Part shown: positions 8,698 to 48,430 of the stretch, piece by piece
How the letters are laid out: the number at the start of each line of letters is the position of its first letter
How positions within the stretch are numbered: position 1 is the stretch's first letter
Position numbers and translations under genes: made by a program
Assembly: GCF_014698235.1 (NCBI RefSeq)
Contig: NZ_JACJSP010000002.1
Coordinates: 62,001-126,000 of the forward strand
Length of the DNA: 64,000 nucleotides
Direction of reading: 5' to 3'
Source: Limnothrix sp. FACHB-406
GTDB lineage: Bacteria > Cyanobacteriota > Cyanobacteriia > CACIAM-69d
The notes under the pieces: model-generated
The model's database searches: none
Seen by the model: the letters and a program-made list of their open reading frames with translations, nothing else
What the model was told of the DNA's origin: nothing

Positions 8698-8868
8698 ACC
8701 TCTTGCGCGAATCGGCTAACAGCCCTCATCCCCCAACCCCTTCTCCCAAGGTGGGCGAAGGGGAGCCAGAAATCAGGAATAACGGCGATTTCGTTGTTGA
8801 TTTTCAAGTCCCTCTCCCGACTTGGGAGAGGGATTTAGGGTGAGGGTTTTGATTGATGCAAGAGGTCT
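8696..8868. mobile_element. MITE-like element with 11-bp terminal inverted repeats and nested hairpins
   Basis: A 173-bp segment begins AGACCTCTTGC (8696-8706) and ends with its exact complement GCAAGAGGTCT (8858-8868). Inside is an outer stem (CCCTCA... at about 8729 pairing with ...TGAGGG at about 8846) and two internal hairpins (CTTCTCCCA... near 8749, CCCTCTCCC...GGGAGAGGG near 8810-8832). The internal part is related to the repeats inside the methylase gene at 45328-46203. No transposase is encoded, so mobilisation in trans is inferred. No clear target-site duplication is seen. The left terminal repeat contributes two bases of the xth stop codon. Confidence 0.75.
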
Positions 8869-40115: not shown

Positions 40116-43100
40116 ATGTCTAGTATTTATGACAATATCGAGCAACCGATCCTACCTGAGTTGCAGCATTATCTGAAGCAAGCCTACCGTGCTGATTTTT
40201 GTGTGGGTTATTTCAACTTGCGGGGATGGCAACAAATTGATTCTGATATTGAGCAATTTGAGGGAGGGGAAGGGAAAACTTGTCGATTGCTGGTGGGGAT
40301 GTACCGTTTGCCGAAAGAAGAGCTACGGCGAGCATTAGCGATCGGAGTAGAGCCAGAGCGAATTGACCAAGGGCAGACAATTCGACTACAAACCTTTATG
40401 GCGCAAGAGTTTCGGCAGCAGTTGACCTACGGTGCGCCCAGTGCGGCTGATGAGGAGGGTTTACAGCGATTACGGCGACAGTTATTAACTGGAAAACTAC
40501 AGGTCAAGCTATTTTTACGAAATGCTCTCCATGCCAAACTGTATTTAATTTATCGCCACGATCGCGCCACGCCCATTATCAGCTACGTGGGCAGTAGCAA
40601 CCTGACTTTATCGGGGCTGAGATCTCAGGGTGAGCTAAATGTGGAAGTGGTTGATCGCGATGATACGAGTAAGTTGGAGCGGTGGTTTGTTGATCGTTGG
40701 GATGATCGCTTTTGTGTCGATATTACGAAGCAGTTAGCGGAAATTATCGACGAAAGTTGGGCGGGACGATCGCTCAAACCCTATTTTGTCTATCTAAAAA
40801 TGGCCTATCACCTGTCCCAAGAGGCGCGGGATGGGTTGAGTCAATACCGCGCTCCGGCCAGTTTTGGACTGCTGCCATTTCAAGAAGCGGCAGTCCAAAT
40901 TGCGGCACACCATGTCAGCAAACGAAATGGGGTGATTATTGGCGATGTGGTCGGGTTGGGCAAAACCTTAGTAGGAACCGCGATCGCCCATCTTTGTGAA
41001 GAAGATTATGGTACGAGTACGCTGATTATCTGCCCGAAGAATCTAGAAAGAATGTGGCAGGGTTATATTGATCGTTATGGCTTGAGGGGCAAGGTAGTTC
41101 CAATTAGCCGTGCGATTCAAGAACTGCCCAATATTCCGGCGCGGTTTCGGTTGGTTTTGATTGATGAAAGCCACAACCTGCGAAATAAGGATGGCAGGCG
41201 GTATCAAGCCATTAAAGACTATATCGAACAGAGTGGTAGTCGCTGTATTTTGCTGACAGCAACGCCCTATAACAAAACCTATCTAGACTTGTCAGCGCAG
41301 TTACAGTTATTCCTACGACCCGATGCGGATTTAGGAATTAAGCCGGAAGCCTATATTCGCAGTATTGGCGGTGAGATGCAGTTTCGCCGCAAACATAGTG
41401 CTAGTCCAGTACGATCGCTGTTGGCCTTTGAGCAGAGTCCAGAACCCGAAGATTGGCAACAGTTGATGAGTCGCTACATGGTGCGGCGGACGCGCAGTTT
41501 CATCAAAAATACCTATGCCAAACAGGATGGCGAACGATTCTATCTGGAATTTGCCGATGGGCGGCGATCGTATTTACCAATCCGTCGTCCTCGGACAGTG
41601 CGATTTACGATCGACCAACCGCAGCGTGATCCCTACGCAAGGTTGTATAGCGATCGCGTGGTGGATGTGATTAATGACCTAAGTTTGCCTCGGTATGGGC
41701 TGGGTATTTATCAAGACCCTAAACCCAAACAACGAGCCACGGACGAAGAACAAAAACTATTGGCGAATCTTTCCCATGCGGGTCAGCGATTAATGGGATT
41801 CTGTCGCACGAATTTGTTTAAGCGATTGGAGAGTAGTGGGGCTGCTTTTATTCAGTCGTTAGAGCGGCATATTTTGCGAAATTATGTGTATCTCCATGCA
41901 ATTAATCACGATCTTCCCCTACCCATTGGTGCTCAGGATGCTGCACTACTGGATGAAGTGGGTGATGATGAAGATTTGCCCTTGAGTCAGGACTGGGAAA
42001 CCGCTGAGGATCTGTCTGACACTTTGGATGAAGAAGATATTGATCCACAGCAGAACTTTACTCAACGAGCCGCAGAGATTTATCGTTTATATCGAGAGCA
42101 ATATTCCCGTCGATTTAAGTGGATTCGTGCTGATCTGTTTCGTCCCCAGTTGCGGCAAAACCTGCAGCAAGATGCCACCGCTTTGATCGGAATTTTGCAA
42201 CTGGCGGGGAATTGGAACCCAGCGTTGGATGGCAAGCTAAAGGCGCTGGTGGCGTTATTACAGCAACAACATCCGACTGAAAAAGTGCTGATTTTCACGC
42301 AGTTTGCGGATACGGCACGATATTTGGCAAGGGCGCTCGCAGATTTGGGCATTCAGCAAGTGGGCTTGGCAACGGGACAATCGGCTGACCCGACGGCTCT
42401 GGCTTGGCGATTTAGTCCGATTAGTAATCAAAAAGAGATTCCAGAAACTGAGCAATTGCGGGTATTGGTAGCAACAGATGTGTTGAGTGAGGGGCAAAAC
42501 CTACAAGATTGCGCCATCATTCTGAATTACGATTTGCCTTGGGCAATTATTCGGCTGATTCAGAGGGCGGGGCGGGTCGATCGGATTGGGCAACAGGCGG
42601 AAGAAATTCTTTGCTATTCGTTTTTGCCTGCGGAGGGCGTGGAGCGGCTGATTAACCTGCGGGGACGGCTGCGCGATCGCCTCAATCAAAACCAAGAAGT
42701 TGTGGGCACGGATGAGGCGTTTTTTGAGGATGAAAAAGCGCAGGAGATGCTGCTCAATCTCTACAATGAGCGATCGGGCGTGTTGGATGAAGTTGATGAA
42801 GGGGAGGTGGATTTAACCTCGGAGGCGTTGCAGATTTGGCAAAGTGCGATCGAGGCAAACCCGGCGCTCAAGGGCATGATTGAAAAACTGCCCGACGTGG
42901 CCTATGCCACCCGTGAGCATGAACCAACGGAAGCCGACCCAGAGGGCGTTTTGCTTTACCTCCGCACCGATAGCGGTACTGATGCGCTGGCGTGGGTGGA
43001 CAAAGACGGCAACAGCGTCACGCAGTCGCAAATGCGAATTTTACGGATGGCTCGGTGCAGCATTGATACGCCGTCTTTGCCTCGTCATCCTCAGCACCAT

Positions 43101-43484
43101 GATTTAGTAACACGCGGATCGGAGCTGATTGCTGAGCAGACCAAGACTGTGGCGGGAACGCTGGGCAATAAGCGCAGCGCGGCATCTCGGACTTACGATC
43201 GCCTGATGGCCTATACCCAGCATGTCCGCGAAACAGCACCCATCCTGGCAACGGGGACAGAATGGGAAAGTCTGGAACGAGCGATCGAGGAAATTAACCA
43301 ATATCCCTTGAAGCAAAATGCGATCGCGCGTCTGAATCGAGAACTCAAGGCGGGAATTAGTGATGAGCAGTTGGCAAAACTGGTGATATTCCTGCGAGAG
43401 CATGACGCGCTCTGTGTGATCAACCTAGATGAACGTCGAGACGGGGCACGGATTATCTGCTCGATGGGATTATTTAGGGGTTAG
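40116..43484 (+). CDS. PLD-like nuclease fused to SNF2-type helicase
   Basis: A 1122-residue fusion. Residues about 20-200 form one PLD-like half with LHAKLYLIY (His139, Lys141) and VGSSNLT (159-165); the HKD aspartate is not in the usual place. A SNF2-type motor follows with motif I GLGKT at 280-284, DESH at 350-353, TATPYN at 381-386, a C-terminal lobe with VLIFTQFADT, and motifs V/VI in DVLSEGQNLQD and QRAGRVDRIGQ. Sharing of PLD, SNF2 helicase and adenine methylase recalls DISARM class 1 (DrmC, DrmD, DrmMI), but drmA and drmB homologues are not seen. It likely translocates on DNA and acts with the downstream methylase in restriction. Confidence 0.85.
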   Translation: MSSIYDNIEQPILPELQHYLKQAYRADFCVGYFNLRGWQQIDSDIEQFEGGEGKTCRLLVGMYRLPKEELRRALAIGVEPERIDQGQTIRLQTFMAQEFRQQLTYGAPSAADEEGLQRLRRQLLTGKLQVKLFLRNALHAKLYLIYRHDRATPIISYVGSSNLTLSGLRSQGELNVEVVDRDDTSKLERWFVDRWDDRFCVDITKQLAEIIDESWAGRSLKPYFVYLKMAYHLSQEARDGLSQYRAPASFGLLPFQEAAVQIAAHHVSKRNGVIIGDVVGLGKTLVGTAIAHLCEEDYGTSTLIICPKNLERMWQGYIDRYGLRGKVVPISRAIQELPNIPARFRLVLIDESHNLRNKDGRRYQAIKDYIEQSGSRCILLTATPYNKTYLDLSAQLQLFLRPDADLGIKPEAYIRSIGGEMQFRRKHSASPVRSLLAFEQSPEPEDWQQLMSRYMVRRTRSFIKNTYAKQDGERFYLEFADGRRSYLPIRRPRTVRFTIDQPQRDPYARLYSDRVVDVINDLSLPRYGLGIYQDPKPKQRATDEEQKLLANLSHAGQRLMGFCRTNLFKRLESSGAAFIQSLERHILRNYVYLHAINHDLPLPIGAQDAALLDEVGDDEDLPLSQDWETAEDLSDTLDEEDIDPQQNFTQRAAEIYRLYREQYSRRFKWIRADLFRPQLRQNLQQDATALIGILQLAGNWNPALDGKLKALVALLQQQHPTEKVLIFTQFADTARYLARALADLGIQQVGLATGQSADPTALAWRFSPISNQKEIPETEQLRVLVATDVLSEGQNLQDCAIILNYDLPWAIIRLIQRAGRVDRIGQQAEEILCYSFLPAEGVERLINLRGRLRDRLNQNQEVVGTDEAFFEDEKAQEMLLNLYNERSGVLDEVDEGEVDLTSEALQIWQSAIEANPALKGMIEKLPDVAYATREHEPTEADPEGVLLYLRTDSGTDALAWVDKDGNSVTQSQMRILRMARCSIDTPSLPRHPQHHDLVTRGSELIAEQTKTVAGTLGNKRSAASRTYDRLMAYTQHVRETAPILATGTEWESLERAIEEINQYPLKQNAIARLNRELKAGISDEQLAKLVIFLREHDALCVINLDERRDGARIICSMGLFRG

Positions 43485-44185: not shown

Positions 44186-47100
44186 ATGCCGCTCCATCGC
44201 CAACGCGCTCAAAAGTATCTCCAAACGTTTGATTTTGAGTCTCTGTTCATTGAAGAACTGGGCTGGGATACGGTCGATCGCGTCATGCTTCCCTTTGAGG
44301 TGGATGGCGAATATTTTGAGGTGGTTTCCCTTGCCCAAAAGCGCGGCTTTACGGTCTTTAAGTGCATTACGCCAGAAATTCCGGCGCGTCCAATTCGGGT
44401 CAAGCTCGATCGACAATTAACGGACTATAGTAAATCCCACCTGTTGGTGTTTGGGGATGAGAGCAAAACGCAGCAGGAATGGTTGTGGCTGAAGCCAGAA
44501 ATTAAGCAAGGCAAAAGTAAAAAGGGAAAAGGTAAAAGTGCAGAGACGGTGACATCGACAAGGGCAGTGCGATCGCATTCCTATAAGGTGAGCCAAAACC
44601 CGGAAACCTTGCTGCAAAAGCTAGAGGCGCTGATTGTCGATTTCAAGGAAGAAGGCAATCTGACCCATGTGGATGTTGCCCAAAAGGTGAAGCAGGGGTT
44701 TGATGTTGAGCGGGTGACGAAGCAATTCTTTCAGGATTTTGAGGGGTTGCACCAGACGTTTTGTTTAGCGATCGAGGGAATCGATTCGGAGGGCGATCGC
44801 CGTTGGTATGCGTCGGTTTTGCTGAATCGGTTAATGTTCATCTATTTCTTGCAGCGGCGCTACTTCCTAGATAATCAAGATGCGCTGTATTTGCAACATA
44901 AACTGCAACTTTGCCAGCGGGAAGGGAGAAATTTTTATGAGTTTCTCAAGGAGTTGTTTTTTGTTGGGTTTGCGGAGCCAGAATATCTACGTGATCCAGA
45001 GATTCAGAAACGGTTAGGCAAGATTTGTTATCTGAATGGGGGCTTGTTTTTACGCCATACCATTGAGCAGAAATATGCTCAAATTCAGATTGATGATCGT
45101 GCCTTTTCGCAGGTTTTCGATCTGTTTTCTCGCTATTCTTGGCATTTGGACGATCGCCCTGAAAAAGACCCGCTGGAAATTAACCCGGATGTGTTGGGCT
45201 ATATTTTCGAGAAATACATTAACCAAAAAGAATTTGGGGCGTACTACACCCGGCCGGAAATCACCGAGTATCTTTGCGATCGCACGATCAACAAATTGGT
45301 GCTCGATCGCCTTGCCCCAACAGAAAGCCCTCATCCCCTAGCCCCTTCTCCCAAAACGGGAGAAGGGGGACAAGAATCGATTGCCGTCGGCGCTCCGGCT
45401 CCCCTCTCCCACCCTGGGAGAGGGGTTGGGGGAGAGGGCCTTTCATCGCTCCTTGAAACATTAGATGCTACCCAATGCGATCGCCTACTAAATGAAATTT
45501 TGCCAACTCTGACGCTGCTCGATCCGGCCTGTGGATCGGGGGCCTTTTTGGTGGCGGCGATGAAAACGTTGATTGGGATTTATCAACGGGTCGTTACAAG
45601 GGCTAAGTCGTTGTTAGAAGACCCTCATCCCCTGGCCCCTTCTCCCAAGGGGGGAGAAGGGGGACAAGAGGTTCGTGCCGTCGGCGCTCCGGCTCCCCTC
45701 TCCCGTCCTGGGAGAGGGGCTGGGGGTGAGGGTCTCATGGCGGAAACTAACCCTCATCCCCTAGCCCCTTCTCCCAAGGAGGGAGAAGGGGGACAAGAGG
45801 CGGAAATGTACTGGGAAATTTCCTCAGTATTGAGACAACGGATGAGGGAAGTTGCTCGCCAATTTCGTAAAGAACCTACAGCCAGTGAAGCCATCTTATG
45901 GCAGGCATTACGCGGACGTAAATTAGATGGACGTAAGTTTAAACGTCAGCAACCAATAGGCGCTTTTATTGTTGATTTTTTCTGTGCTCAAGAGCGCTTA
46001 GTGGTAGAAGTTGACGGTGGTGTGCATCAAAATCAGCAAGAAGCGGATCAACAGCGTCAACAGTTACTTGAGTCCTTGGGATTACGATTTGTTCGTGTTA
46101 ACAGCAACTCTGTAGAACGAGATTTGCCCACAGTTCTATCACAGATTCGCGCTGAATTCTTACCCCCCTTTCCCTCCCTGGGAGAGGGGCTGGGGGTGAG
46201 GGCAAGCATTACTCAATGGTTGCAGGAAGCTGCCAAGCATCCATCCCTTGACTACTACATCAAAAAACGGATCATTACGGACAATCTCTATGGTGTGGAC
46301 ATCATGGAGGAGGCGACGGAAATTGCGAAGTTGCGGCTATTTTTGGCGTTGGTTTCTTCGGCAAAAACGGTTAATGATTTGGAACCGTTGCCGAATATTG
46401 ATTTCAATATTATGGCGGGCAATTCGCTGATTGGTTTGATTCGAGTCGATGGGGAAGGGTTTGATCGCTTAAGTCAAAAGGAAAAAGGTAAAGGGCAAAG
46501 GGGCAGCGGGTTTGACTCGACGCAAATTAATTTGTTGGGGCCAACGGCGGTGCAGGGCAATTTGCTGCAAGGGTTGGCGGCTTCGGAATATCAGCGAATT
46601 TTGGAGGACAAAAATCGCACCATTGCGCTCTACAAAAAACACGCTTTCCAGCAGGCGGACTCGGAATTGCCCCAGGAAACTCGCCTGTTGCAGTTGCGTG
46701 ACCACATCGACAAGCTCAACCGGGAATCTCAAGCAAAGCTGAATCAATTGTTGTTGGATGAGTTTAGCCAGCGGTTGGGGATTAAGTATGAGCAAGCGCA
46801 ATTGGTGGGCAAACCCCAAAAGCGGCTATTGACCATTGCGGATATCGATGCGCTGGAGCCGTTTCACTGGGGCTACCATTTTGATCGGGTGTTTGCGCGG
46901 GGTGGGTTTGATGCGATTATTGCCAATCCGCCGTGGGAAGTTTTCAAACCCAATGCTAAGGAATTTTTCGCTAATCACAGTGACCTTGTAGCTAAAAAGA
47001 AAATGGATATCAAGGCATTTGAAAAGGAGCAGAAGAGGCTTTTACAAGATCCAGATATTGCCCAGGCTTGGAATGAGTATCAGAGCCAATTCCCCCACGT

Positions 47101-48430
47101 TAGTGCCTATTTTCGATCATCGGAAGATTACATCAACCAAATCTCGATCGTGAATGGGAAAAAAGCTGGAACTGATATAAACCTTTACAAACTATTTTTA
47201 GAACGCTGTCATCATTTATTACGGGATGGTGGTGAGTGTGGCATTGTCATTCCTAGTGGTATCTATACCGATTTGGGAACAAAGCAACTCCGAGAAATGC
47301 TTTTTTCGCAAACAGAAGTAACAGGACTATTTTGCTTCGAGAACCGCAAGGCAATTTTTGAGGGCGTGGATAGTCGCTTTAAGTTTGTAATCTTGAGCTT
47401 CGGGAAAGGTGGAAAAACACAAGCTTTTCCCGTGCGGTTCATGCGTCACGATGTCGCTGAATTAACCAATTTTCCTGCACCTAATGATATCCGTTTAGAT
47501 ATCTCTCTCATCCGAAAGTTATCGCCAGATTATTTGTCAATCACGGAGTTCAAAAATGAGATTGACATTCAAATTGCCAAGAAAATGATGCAATTTCCTC
47601 TTATATATGATTCTGAACTTGGTTGGAATTTAGAGCTTTATGGCGAAGAATTACACATGAATCGTGGAGCTAAATTCTTTCAAACTCAGAAAACTGAATA
47701 TCCTTTGTATGAAGGTGGAATGATTTTACATTTCTCTCATTGCTATGATGAGCCTAGATATTGGATTGAAGAATCTGATTTGAGAAGTGATTTTCTTGAG
47801 AAACGTCGAAAAAGAACTGGATTAAATGAGATTCCAAAAGATCTTAAAAATGATTATGAAGCATATAGAATTGCGATAAGAAAAATTGCTAGAAATACTG
47901 ACTCTAGAACATTAATATCGTGTTTAATCCCTAAAAATTGTCTAGCAGGGAACTCTTTGTCTGTTCATTTCCCATTTGAAAACAATTCCCATAATTACAA
48001 TAGGTTAAGATTTACAAGTGAAGAATTACTTGTATTAGTTTCGTTCTTGAGTAGTTTTCCTGCAGATTATATACTTCGATCTCGAATGACGGCAAATCTT
48101 AATACTTTTTATCTTTATCAAATCCCAGTCCCACGACTCCAAAAAGGAGACACATGGTTTGATGTCATAGTAACCTGTGCCGCCAAACTCATCTGCACCA
48201 CCCCCGAATTTGACGACTTAGCCAAAGAAGTTGGCTTAGGCTCCCACAAAAACGGCATCACAAACGAAATAGAACGGGGTAAACTTCGCGCCGAACTCGA
48301 TGGCATCATTGCCCACCTGTATGACTTAACCGAAGCAGAATTTACCCATATTCTCAGCACCTTCCCGATCGTCCCCGAGCCAGTCAAAGAAGCCGCCCTT
48401 AATGCTTACCGGGAGTTAAGTAAAAAGTAA
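44186..48430 (+). CDS. Eco57I-type adenine DNA methylase with in-frame repeat and DUF559 insertions
   Basis: A 1414-residue N6-adenine methyltransferase of the restriction type. The N-terminus shows YLQTFDFESLFIEELGWD. Motif I is DPACGSGAF (446-454), a linked GVDIMEEATEIAKLRL begins near 700, and motif IV is NPPW (914-917). A C-terminal target-recognition region follows. Two GC-rich hairpin repeats are translated at about 381-418 and 479-516, a third plus a DUF559 domain at about 522-673, and two A-rich heptad arrays at about 109-119 and 763-773. Without these it would be near 1200 residues, usual for the family. All insertions leave the frame open. The segment encoding residues about 925-1325 is AT-rich. 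The stop codon is made by a heptad repeat (AGTAAAAAGTAA). Confidence 0.88.
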   Translation: MPLHRQRAQKYLQTFDFESLFIEELGWDTVDRVMLPFEVDGEYFEVVSLAQKRGFTVFKCITPEIPARPIRVKLDRQLTDYSKSHLLVFGDESKTQQEWLWLKPEIKQGKSKKGKGKSAETVTSTRAVRSHSYKVSQNPETLLQKLEALIVDFKEEGNLTHVDVAQKVKQGFDVERVTKQFFQDFEGLHQTFCLAIEGIDSEGDRRWYASVLLNRLMFIYFLQRRYFLDNQDALYLQHKLQLCQREGRNFYEFLKELFFVGFAEPEYLRDPEIQKRLGKICYLNGGLFLRHTIEQKYAQIQIDDRAFSQVFDLFSRYSWHLDDRPEKDPLEINPDVLGYIFEKYINQKEFGAYYTRPEITEYLCDRTINKLVLDRLAPTESPHPLAPSPKTGEGGQESIAVGAPAPLSHPGRGVGGEGLSSLLETLDATQCDRLLNEILPTLTLLDPACGSGAFLVAAMKTLIGIYQRVVTRAKSLLEDPHPLAPSPKGGEGGQEVRAVGAPAPLSRPGRGAGGEGLMAETNPHPLAPSPKEGEGGQEAEMYWEISSVLRQRMREVARQFRKEPTASEAILWQALRGRKLDGRKFKRQQPIGAFIVDFFCAQERLVVEVDGGVHQNQQEADQQRQQLLESLGLRFVRVNSNSVERDLPTVLSQIRAEFLPPFPSLGEGLGVRASITQWLQEAAKHPSLDYYIKKRIITDNLYGVDIMEEATEIAKLRLFLALVSSAKTVNDLEPLPNIDFNIMAGNSLIGLIRVDGEGFDRLSQKEKGKGQRGSGFDSTQINLLGPTAVQGNLLQGLAASEYQRILEDKNRTIALYKKHAFQQADSELPQETRLLQLRDHIDKLNRESQAKLNQLLLDEFSQRLGIKYEQAQLVGKPQKRLLTIADIDALEPFHWGYHFDRVFARGGFDAIIANPPWEVFKPNAKEFFANHSDLVAKKKMDIKAFEKEQKRLLQDPDIAQAWNEYQSQFPHVSAYFRSSEDYINQISIVNGKKAGTDINLYKLFLERCHHLLRDGGECGIVIPSGIYTDLGTKQLREMLFSQTEVTGLFCFENRKAIFEGVDSRFKFVILSFGKGGKTQAFPVRFMRHDVAELTNFPAPNDIRLDISLIRKLSPDYLSITEFKNEIDIQIAKKMMQFPLIYDSELGWNLELYGEELHMNRGAKFFQTQKTEYPLYEGGMILHFSHCYDEPRYWIEESDLRSDFLEKRRKRTGLNEIPKDLKNDYEAYRIAIRKIARNTDSRTLISCLIPKNCLAGNSLSVHFPFENNSHNYNRLRFTSEELLVLVSFLSSFPADYILRSRMTANLNTFYLYQIPVPRLQKGDTWFDVIVTCAAKLICTTPEFDDLAKEVGLGSHKNGITNEIERGKLRAELDGIIAHLYDLTEAEFTHILSTFPIVPEPVKEAALNAYRELSKK
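44510..44540 (+). repeat. A-rich heptanucleotide array inside the methylase, copy 1
   Basis: Consecutive heptads GGCAAAA GTAAAAA GGGAAAA GGTAAAA, translated as GKSKKGKGKS. The same heptads occur at 46473-46503, 48420-48450 and 48883-48915, and inverted at 48521-48548 and 48948-49005. Similar arrays are known as STRR sequences in cyanobacteria. Confidence 0.8.
45328..45440. repeat. GC-rich double-hairpin repeat inside the methylase, copy 1
   Basis: About 113 bp. Outer stem CCCTCATCCCC...GGGGAGAGGG encloses hairpin 1 (CCCCTTCTCCC aaaac GGGAGAAGGGG), a roughly 30-nt spacer and hairpin 2 (CCCCTCTCCC accct GGGAGAGGGG). Translated as PHPLAPSPKTGEGGQE... and APLSHPGRGVGGEG. It lies just before the segment encoding motif I. 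Confidence 0.9.
45622..45733. repeat. GC-rich double-hairpin repeat inside the methylase, copy 2
   Basis: About 112 bp with the same two hairpins and a spacer nearly identical to copy 1 (GCCGTCGGCGCTCCGGCT in both). It lies after motif I and 17 bp before copy 3. Translation (PHPLAPSPKGGEGGQE) is in the same frame as copy 1. Confidence 0.9.
45751..46203 (+). mobile_element. Double-hairpin repeat carrying a DUF559 nuclease-like domain
   Basis: The left half is hairpin 1 (CCCCTTCTCCC aagga GGGAGAAGGGG at 45766-45792) as in copies 1 and 2, then GACAAGAGG. The usual 30-nt spacer is replaced by about 360 bp encoding a complete DUF559 domain (45807-46160). Hairpin 2 and the outer right arm follow (46164-46203). 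The domain shows TASEAILWQALRGRKLDGRKFKRQQ, IGAFIVDFFC, VVEVDGGVHQNQQ and LRFVRVNSNSV, typical of Vsr-like endonuclease folds, with acidic catalytic residues intact. The unit is 453 bp, exactly 151 codons, and keeps the methylase open. Mobility is inferred from the repeat bounds, not shown. Confidence 0.75.
46473..46503 (+). repeat. A-rich heptanucleotide array inside the methylase, copy 2
   Basis: Heptads GTCAAAA GGAAAAA GGTAAAG GGCAAAG GGG, translated as SQKEKGKGQRG. It lies between the GVDIM region and motif IV, a surface loop by its charge. Confidence 0.75.

What the first reader, a model, noticed from the sequence alone, without database searches (positions are those of the whole stretch)
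45751..46203. A DUF559 nuclease-like domain sits between the two hairpins of a repeat, in frame within a DNA methylase
Solo copies of the repeat (45328, 45622) have hairpin 1, a roughly 30-nt spacer and hairpin 2. Here the spacer is replaced by about 360 bp encoding an apparently complete Vsr-like DUF559 domain, and the whole unit is exactly 151 codons. This looks like an autonomous/non-autonomous pair: DUF559 plus hairpins could be a mobile cassette, with solo repeats as its deleted derivatives. Homing-endonuclease-like spread into a coding gene without loss of the frame would be a distinctive lifestyle.
Basis: partly seen in the sequence, partly recalled or inferred. Interest (0 to 1): 0.88.

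Follow-up and report, generated by a model that had tools for sequence, protein, structure and literature searches.

The report
Triplex-repeat-bounded DUF559 nuclease cassette
A small DNA-cutting enzyme (DUF559) sits, without breaking the reading frame, between two DNA repeats that could fold into a triple helix; the same pairing recurs across many bacterial phyla, including E. coli, so the enzyme is a strong candidate for the missing partner that spreads these long-known but unexplained repeats.

Summary
Window 45751-46203 is hairpin, DUF559 domain, hairpin, in frame inside a type IIG restriction-modification gene, with two solo repeats beside it. It is not a local oddity: in two separate samples about 80% of DUF559 loci have inverted-repeat flanks (control windows 0-0.5%).

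Each hairpin carries a third arm, a mirror copy of its purine arm, usually 3 nt away. This is the intrastrand-triplex motif known in E. coli as BoxC/PIT, for which earlier work found no mobility gene. Arm and tail covary across lineages. Genomes with DUF559 carry more of these hairpins in Cyanobacteria, Gammaproteobacteria and within E. coli (YcjD).

Orthologues of three in-frame host genes (type IIG methylase, M14 peptidase, DnaG) show empty sites; at DnaG one genome has the repeat pair without the nuclease.

The predicted fold is closest to NGO0050, then to homing endonuclease I-Bth0305I. The domain is under purifying selection, and one DUF559 sits in an intein. I read this as a REPtron-like cassette whose nuclease acts at triplex repeats. 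The partnership is well supported; cutting and mobilisation are inferred.

The parts
44186..48430 (+). Host ORF, type IIG restriction-modification enzyme, 1414 aa, carrying three in-frame repeat units
   Evidence: ORF; PADLOC PDLC03628 510 bits; Pfam Eco57I
45328..45438 (+). Solo triplex-repeat pair 1 (site 1): third arm 45328-45338, hairpin 1 45342-45368, spacer, hairpin 2 45401-45425, third arm 45429-45438
45622..45732 (+). Solo triplex-repeat pair 2: third arm 45622-45632, hairpin 1 45636-45662, hairpin 2 45695-45719, third arm 45723-45732
45751..45791 (+). Left repeat of the cassette: third arm 45751-45761 (CCCTCATCCCC), 3-nt spacer, hairpin 1 45765-45791
   Evidence: mirror match 1.0 (locus L001 left flank)
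45806..46159 (+). DUF559 nuclease coding part (domain about 45839-46153)
   Evidence: PF04480 E 1.3e-32; AF2 pLDDT 91.7; structure matches
46165..46202 (+). Right repeat of the cassette: hairpin 2 46165-46189, CTG, third arm 46193-46202 (GGGGTGAGGG)
   Evidence: mirror match 1.0 (locus L001 right flank)

Best explanation
The unit is a small nuclease cassette: a DUF559 (Vsr/homing-endonuclease-fold) gene bounded by BoxC-type intrastrand-triplex repeats. DUF559 is the dedicated partner nuclease of these repeats, much as a RAYT transposase is the partner of REP repeats. Proposed mechanism: the triplex repeat stalls replication or opens the DNA; DUF559 nicks or cuts at or near it; repair from another copy, or joining into a new break, carries the repeat and sometimes the adjacent nuclease gene to a new place. 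Recombination between directly repeated copies can remove the nuclease and leave a solo repeat pair. In-frame copies survive where the host protein has a tolerant loop and the repeat reads through, here in a type IIG restriction-modification enzyme. SHOWN: anatomy, recurrent association, covarying third arm, copy-number link, empty and repeat-only sites, purifying selection on the nuclease. INFERRED: cutting at the repeat, repair-driven spread, and the direction of solo/full interconversion.
For: Inverted-repeat flanks in 44/56 DUF559 loci versus 1/189 control windows and 23/29 versus 0/87 in an independent gammaproteobacterial sample. Triplex motif in 102/182 flank segments versus 3/288 controls; own arm matches own tail in 63% versus 5% when swapped. 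DUF559 genomes carry more hairpins: Cyanobacteria p 3.4e-5, Gammaproteobacteria 22/29 versus 25/114, p 1e-7, surviving genome-size stratification; within E. coli ycjD+ median 19 versus ycjD- 12. Polymorphic sites: methylase, M14 peptidase, DnaG with none / repeat pair only / repeats plus DUF559. Long direct-repeat flanks in 16/88 loci. dN/dS 0.065-0.16. Structure next to homing endonuclease I-Bth0305I, Z 11.4. Intein-borne DUF559.
Against: No cutting, binding or movement was observed. Orientation and distance of the repeats vary (27 both inward, 13 both outward, 11 mixed), so there is no fixed element end, and no target duplication was resolved. Some genomes have many hairpins without DUF559 (G233, G185, G255) and some DUF559 loci have no repeats (L055, L177). 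Copy-number links are not corrected for phylogeny; in E. coli lineage is a confounder. In the own genome many copies ride in another TIR element.
Confidence: 0.6

Rival explanations
1. Homing version: triplex-repeat pairs are the recognition/landing site and DUF559 is a homing endonuclease that inserts between existing repeats. Solo pairs are then empty sites, and the repeats themselves spread by other means.
For: DnaG L227 has the repeat pair without DUF559 where L229 has repeats plus DUF559; direct repeats flank DUF559 in 16/88 loci; scattered filled sites on the M14 tree; homing-endonuclease fold and an intein case.
Against: At methylase site 2 and in most M14 orthologues the empty site lacks repeats too, so nuclease and repeats usually arrive together; the copy-number link suggests DUF559 affects repeat number.
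Confidence: 0.2
2. Passenger: DUF559 is a Vsr-like repair or genome-maintenance enzyme with no action on the repeats; triplex repeats are fragile sites that collect such genes.
For: DUF559 protein VsrA of Caulobacter is discussed as mismatch repair (PMC12907096); triplex motifs are linked to instability (PMC4666352).
Against: Tight packing (most flank repeats within tens of nt), matching repeats on both sides (own partner best of 89 for 24/66), the same pairing in several phyla, and absence of similar flanking for Y1 transposases (4/26).
Confidence: 0.15
3. The repeats are REPs moved by a RAYT (Y1/HUH transposase), and DUF559 only hitchhikes.
For: Most of the hairpin-rich cyanobacterial genomes also have some Y1 gene; any-Y1 association p 9e-4.
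Against: Strong Y1 hits show no association (p 0.20); D+Y- genomes still have repeats (5, 7, 14) while D-Y+ are mostly low; only 4/26 Y1 loci have inverted flanks and none has hairpins of 9+ on both sides; no GTAG tag.
Confidence: 0.03
4. Functional fusion: DUF559 is an added nuclease domain of the type IIG restriction-modification enzyme.
For: Hosts are often restriction-modification methylases, with insertion after the motif I helix in several families.
Against: Only the window and L095 carry the domain among the eight methylase sequences aligned; the same cassette occurs in DnaG, M14 peptidase and as standalone genes.
Confidence: 0.02

Closest known systems
BoxC / PIT / TM intrastrand-triplex repeats (PMC4666352)
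   Same: Pyrimidine arm, purine arm and a mirror third arm after 3 nt; inverted pairs; abundant in cyanobacteria and enterobacteria
   Different: Known copies in K-12 are intergenic and no mobility gene was found; here a DUF559 gene lies between them and copies sit in frame in genes
REPtrons: RAYT transposase with REP/REPIN repeats (PMC3733652, PMC3116915)
   Same: Palindromic repeats flanking a dedicated DNA-processing gene, with many solo repeats in the same genome
   Different: PD-(D/E)XK-fold DUF559 instead of HUH tyrosine transposase; triplex repeats without the GTAG tag
Vsr-fold homing endonuclease I-Bth0305I (PDB 3R3P)
   Same: Catalytic-domain fold, Z 11.4
   Different: The window cassette has no intein or intron; self-splicing is not involved
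Vsr / VsrA repair endonucleases
   Same: Fold (1CW0, Z 9.3); Caulobacter VsrA contains DUF559 and is responsible for an SOS response in cells lacking a cytosine methylase (PMC12907096)
   Different: TG-mismatch activity untested here; flanking triplex repeats are not part of that description
Rickettsia palindromic elements and other intragenic REPs (PMC3733652)
   Same: Palindromic repeats inserted in frame in coding genes
   Different: Those are described without a nuclease gene; RPE sequences were not compared here

Membership tests
DUF559 (PF04480) | Match above the Pfam gathering score | tested here: met
   112.3 bits against cut-off 20.6
BoxC/PIT/TM triplex repeats | Hairpin with purine arm plus mirror third arm after a short loop | tested here: met
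   Both window repeats match at 1.0, spacer 3
BoxC/PIT/TM triplex repeats | Exact E. coli consensus with 9-nt blocks | tested here: not met
   Window blocks are 10 and 11 nt; same architecture, different sequence variant
BoxC/PIT/TM triplex repeats | Triplex forms in vitro | not testable with these tools
   Needs CD/NMR
REPtron (RAYT-REP) | Dedicated gene flanked by repeats that are also solo in the genome | tested here: met
REPtron (RAYT-REP) | HUH/Y1 transposase as the gene | tested here: not met
   Gene is DUF559; Y1 loci lack these flanks
Vsr-fold homing endonuclease | Fold of the catalytic domain | tested here: met
   3R3P Z 11.4, rmsd 2.2 over 89 residues
Vsr-fold homing endonuclease | Carried in an intein or intron | tested here: not met
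   No intein model hits the window ORF; met for L081 only
Vsr-fold homing endonuclease | Site-specific cutting that drives its own copying | not testable with these tools
   Polymorphic sites are suggestive only
Vsr repair endonuclease | Nicks TG mismatches | not testable with these tools
   Needs enzymology
Rickettsia palindromic elements | Sequence relationship to RPE families | not tested
   No RPE sequence was compared

The most novel reading that the evidence does not exclude
DUF559 nucleases and intrastrand-triplex (BoxC-type) repeats form one ancient, cross-phylum class of mobile element whose ends are recognised by triplex architecture rather than by a fixed sequence, and which can enter genes in frame; E. 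coli YcjD would be the partner enzyme of BoxC.
Probability: 0.45. Interest if true: 0.95.

Novelty: new variant of a known kind. Interest (0 to 1): 0.84.

Why it matters
BoxC-type triplex repeats occur in hundreds of genomes, are linked to genome instability, and had no known mobility gene (PMC4666352). Naming a conserved nuclease as the candidate partner makes their origin testable in E. coli K-12, where ycjD lies beside BoxC-type copies. It also gives a function hypothesis for DUF559 and a possible route by which repeat-coded segments enter proteins in frame.

Tried and rejected
The E. coli ycjD-negative site is not a clean empty site: an MFS efflux operon sits there in the four strains read. 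L153 and L154 gave no good inverted pair; L151 has long direct repeats instead. An exact insertion boundary in the methylase could not be set because the flanking protein diverges, and no target-site duplication was resolved. RAYT idea tested and disfavoured. Domain-fusion idea disfavoured by empty orthologues. The Mantel correlation is confounded by shared ancestry and is weak alone. Ten searches of an open-access library found no paper linking DUF559 to these repeats; work in subscription journals could have been missed.

Full report
OBSERVATION. The described unit is real. 45751-46203 is 151 codons, in frame in a 1414-aa ORF that PADLOC identifies as a type IIG restriction-modification enzyme. 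Two 120-nt solo repeats (45322, 45616; 86% identical) lie just upstream. The hairpin patterns are not expected by chance.

WHAT THE REPEAT IS. Each hairpin has a pyrimidine arm, a purine arm and, usually 3 nt further on, a third arm that is the mirror image of the purine arm (A may be T). In the window, hairpin 1 has 11-nt arms and an 11-nt third arm; hairpin 2 has 10 and 10. Over 167 flank hairpins, 63% match their own mirror at 0.9 or better, against 5% when arms are swapped between loci; the spacer is 3 nt in 88 of 105 good cases; 50 distinct purine arms are involved. This is the architecture of the intrastrand-triplex motif (BoxC/PIT/TM) of PMC4666352. Physical triplex formation is not shown for these sequences.

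ASSOCIATION WITH DUF559. A scan of GTDB contigs with the window domain returned 37 DUF559 loci chosen without regard to flanks; most show such repeats. A family search in cyanobacterial relatives added loci L064-L092. Inverted flanks: 44/56 loci versus 1/189 control windows. Independent gammaproteobacterial sample: 23/29 versus 0/87; Y1-transposase loci 4/26. Triplex motif: 102/182 flank segments versus 3/288 controls.

COPY NUMBER. Genomes with a strong DUF559 carry more hairpins: Cyanobacteria p 3e-5, Gammaproteobacteria 22/29 versus 25/114. This survives genome-size stratification but is not corrected for phylogeny. Twenty-five DUF559 genomes from several phyla mostly carry many hairpins. 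A rare repeat variant occurs in 12/143 genomes, including the two whose DUF559 flanks carry it, though other genomes have it too. Within E. coli, YcjD is a DUF559 protein beside BoxC-type copies. In a spread of 59 chromosomes, ycjD+ genomes have median 19 matches to a K-12 copy and ycjD- 12; lineage is a confounder.

POLYMORPHISM. Methylase site 2: empty in L094 (same genus), L096, L097, L098, L099 and L101; filled in the window and L095. M14 peptidase in a Melainabacteria family: found in 93 of 97 genomes; four in that sample have the long open frame expected of a DUF559 insert; of the 30 loci fetched, three show a roughly 145-aa insert at one loop and nearly all others are empty; the label changes at least four times on the host-gene tree, which also includes two further filled loci. 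DnaG in a betaproteobacterial family: most orthologues have no repeats, L227 has a repeat pair alone, L222, L229 and L235 have repeats plus DUF559. Between L227 and L229 the alignment can be read as loss or gain of DUF559 bounded by directly repeated motifs; L227 may also keep a short stretch resembling the DUF559 N-terminus, which is not proven. Long direct-repeat flanks occur in 16/88 loci.

THE NUCLEASE. The AF2 model has mean pLDDT 91.7. Nearest solved structures are NGO0050 (3HRL, Z 15.0), homing endonuclease I-Bth0305I (3R3P, Z 11.4) and Vsr (1CW0, Z 9.3). Invariant residues across 31 relatives include E28, E68, D70, H74 and D81. dN/dS in pairs where it could be computed is 0.065-0.16; for window versus L095 synonymous sites are saturated, with 78.6% amino-acid identity. 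In L081 a DUF559 lies between intein-like blocks inside an N6/N4 methylase, with an intein C-terminal model above its cut-off.

LAYOUT. Of 51 loci with both motifs oriented, 27 have both third arms inward, 13 both outward, 11 mixed (inverted pairs 40/51, p 6e-5). In-frame cassettes are more often outward, standalone genes mostly inward. The ends of a mobile unit are therefore not fixed.

MECHANISM. I favour a nuclease-plus-triplex-repeat partnership spread by break and repair, with gene loss by recombination between repeats. Cutting, repair-driven spread and direction are inferred. A homing version, in which repeat pairs are landing sites, remains a live rival. Consistent outside reports: DUF559 protein VsrA is responsible for SOS induction in a Caulobacter methylase mutant (PMC12907096), and transposase/DUF559 segments are recombination hotspots in evolved Legionella (PMC12308824).

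NOVELTY. The repeats, the domain family and the fold are known, and REPtrons supply the nearest design (PMC3733652). I found no report of the DUF559-triplex pairing in the open-access library searched.

Noticed in passing
window about 8711-8860 (L019); also L007-L009, L012, L013, L015-L018, L020, L023, L024: Many intergenic repeat pairs of this genome lie inside a larger element with ends TAGACCTCTTGC...GCAAGAGGTCTA, so they may have been multiplied by an unrelated transposase.
   Followed up: partly
L081 (genome G028): A DUF559 inside an intein in motif I of an N6/N4 methylase, with repeat-like coded stretches (PPRTGG...PARGEG) near its N-terminal block.
   Followed up: partly
window 44508, 46471, 48418: A second, A-rich repeat (AAGGCAAAAGTAAAAAG-like) occurs twice in frame in the same host gene and again at its end.
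   Followed up: no
window 40116-43484: A HKD+Snf2 helicase (PADLOC C3a139, DrmD-like) lies just upstream of the type IIG gene, so the cassette is in a likely defence locus.
   Followed up: no
L082, L091, L092, L182, L189: Other DUF559 subfamilies go with other repeats (CCCCCTT...AAGGGGG with GGGGGAT or GGGGGATT third arms) that obey the same mirror rule.
   Followed up: partly
L151 (Neisseria, NGO0050-like): The DUF559 gene with a close solved relative (3HRL) is flanked by about 113-nt direct repeats.
   Followed up: partly
L155 (Pseudanabaena plasmid pPg_02): DUF559 with repeat pairs sits in frame in a large gene next to brxC, annotated only as a DUF559 protein; probably a BREX methylase.
   Followed up: no
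L157-L160 (E. coli, between sapF and fabI): ycjD-negative E. coli strains carry an MFS efflux operon at the ycjD position.
   Followed up: no
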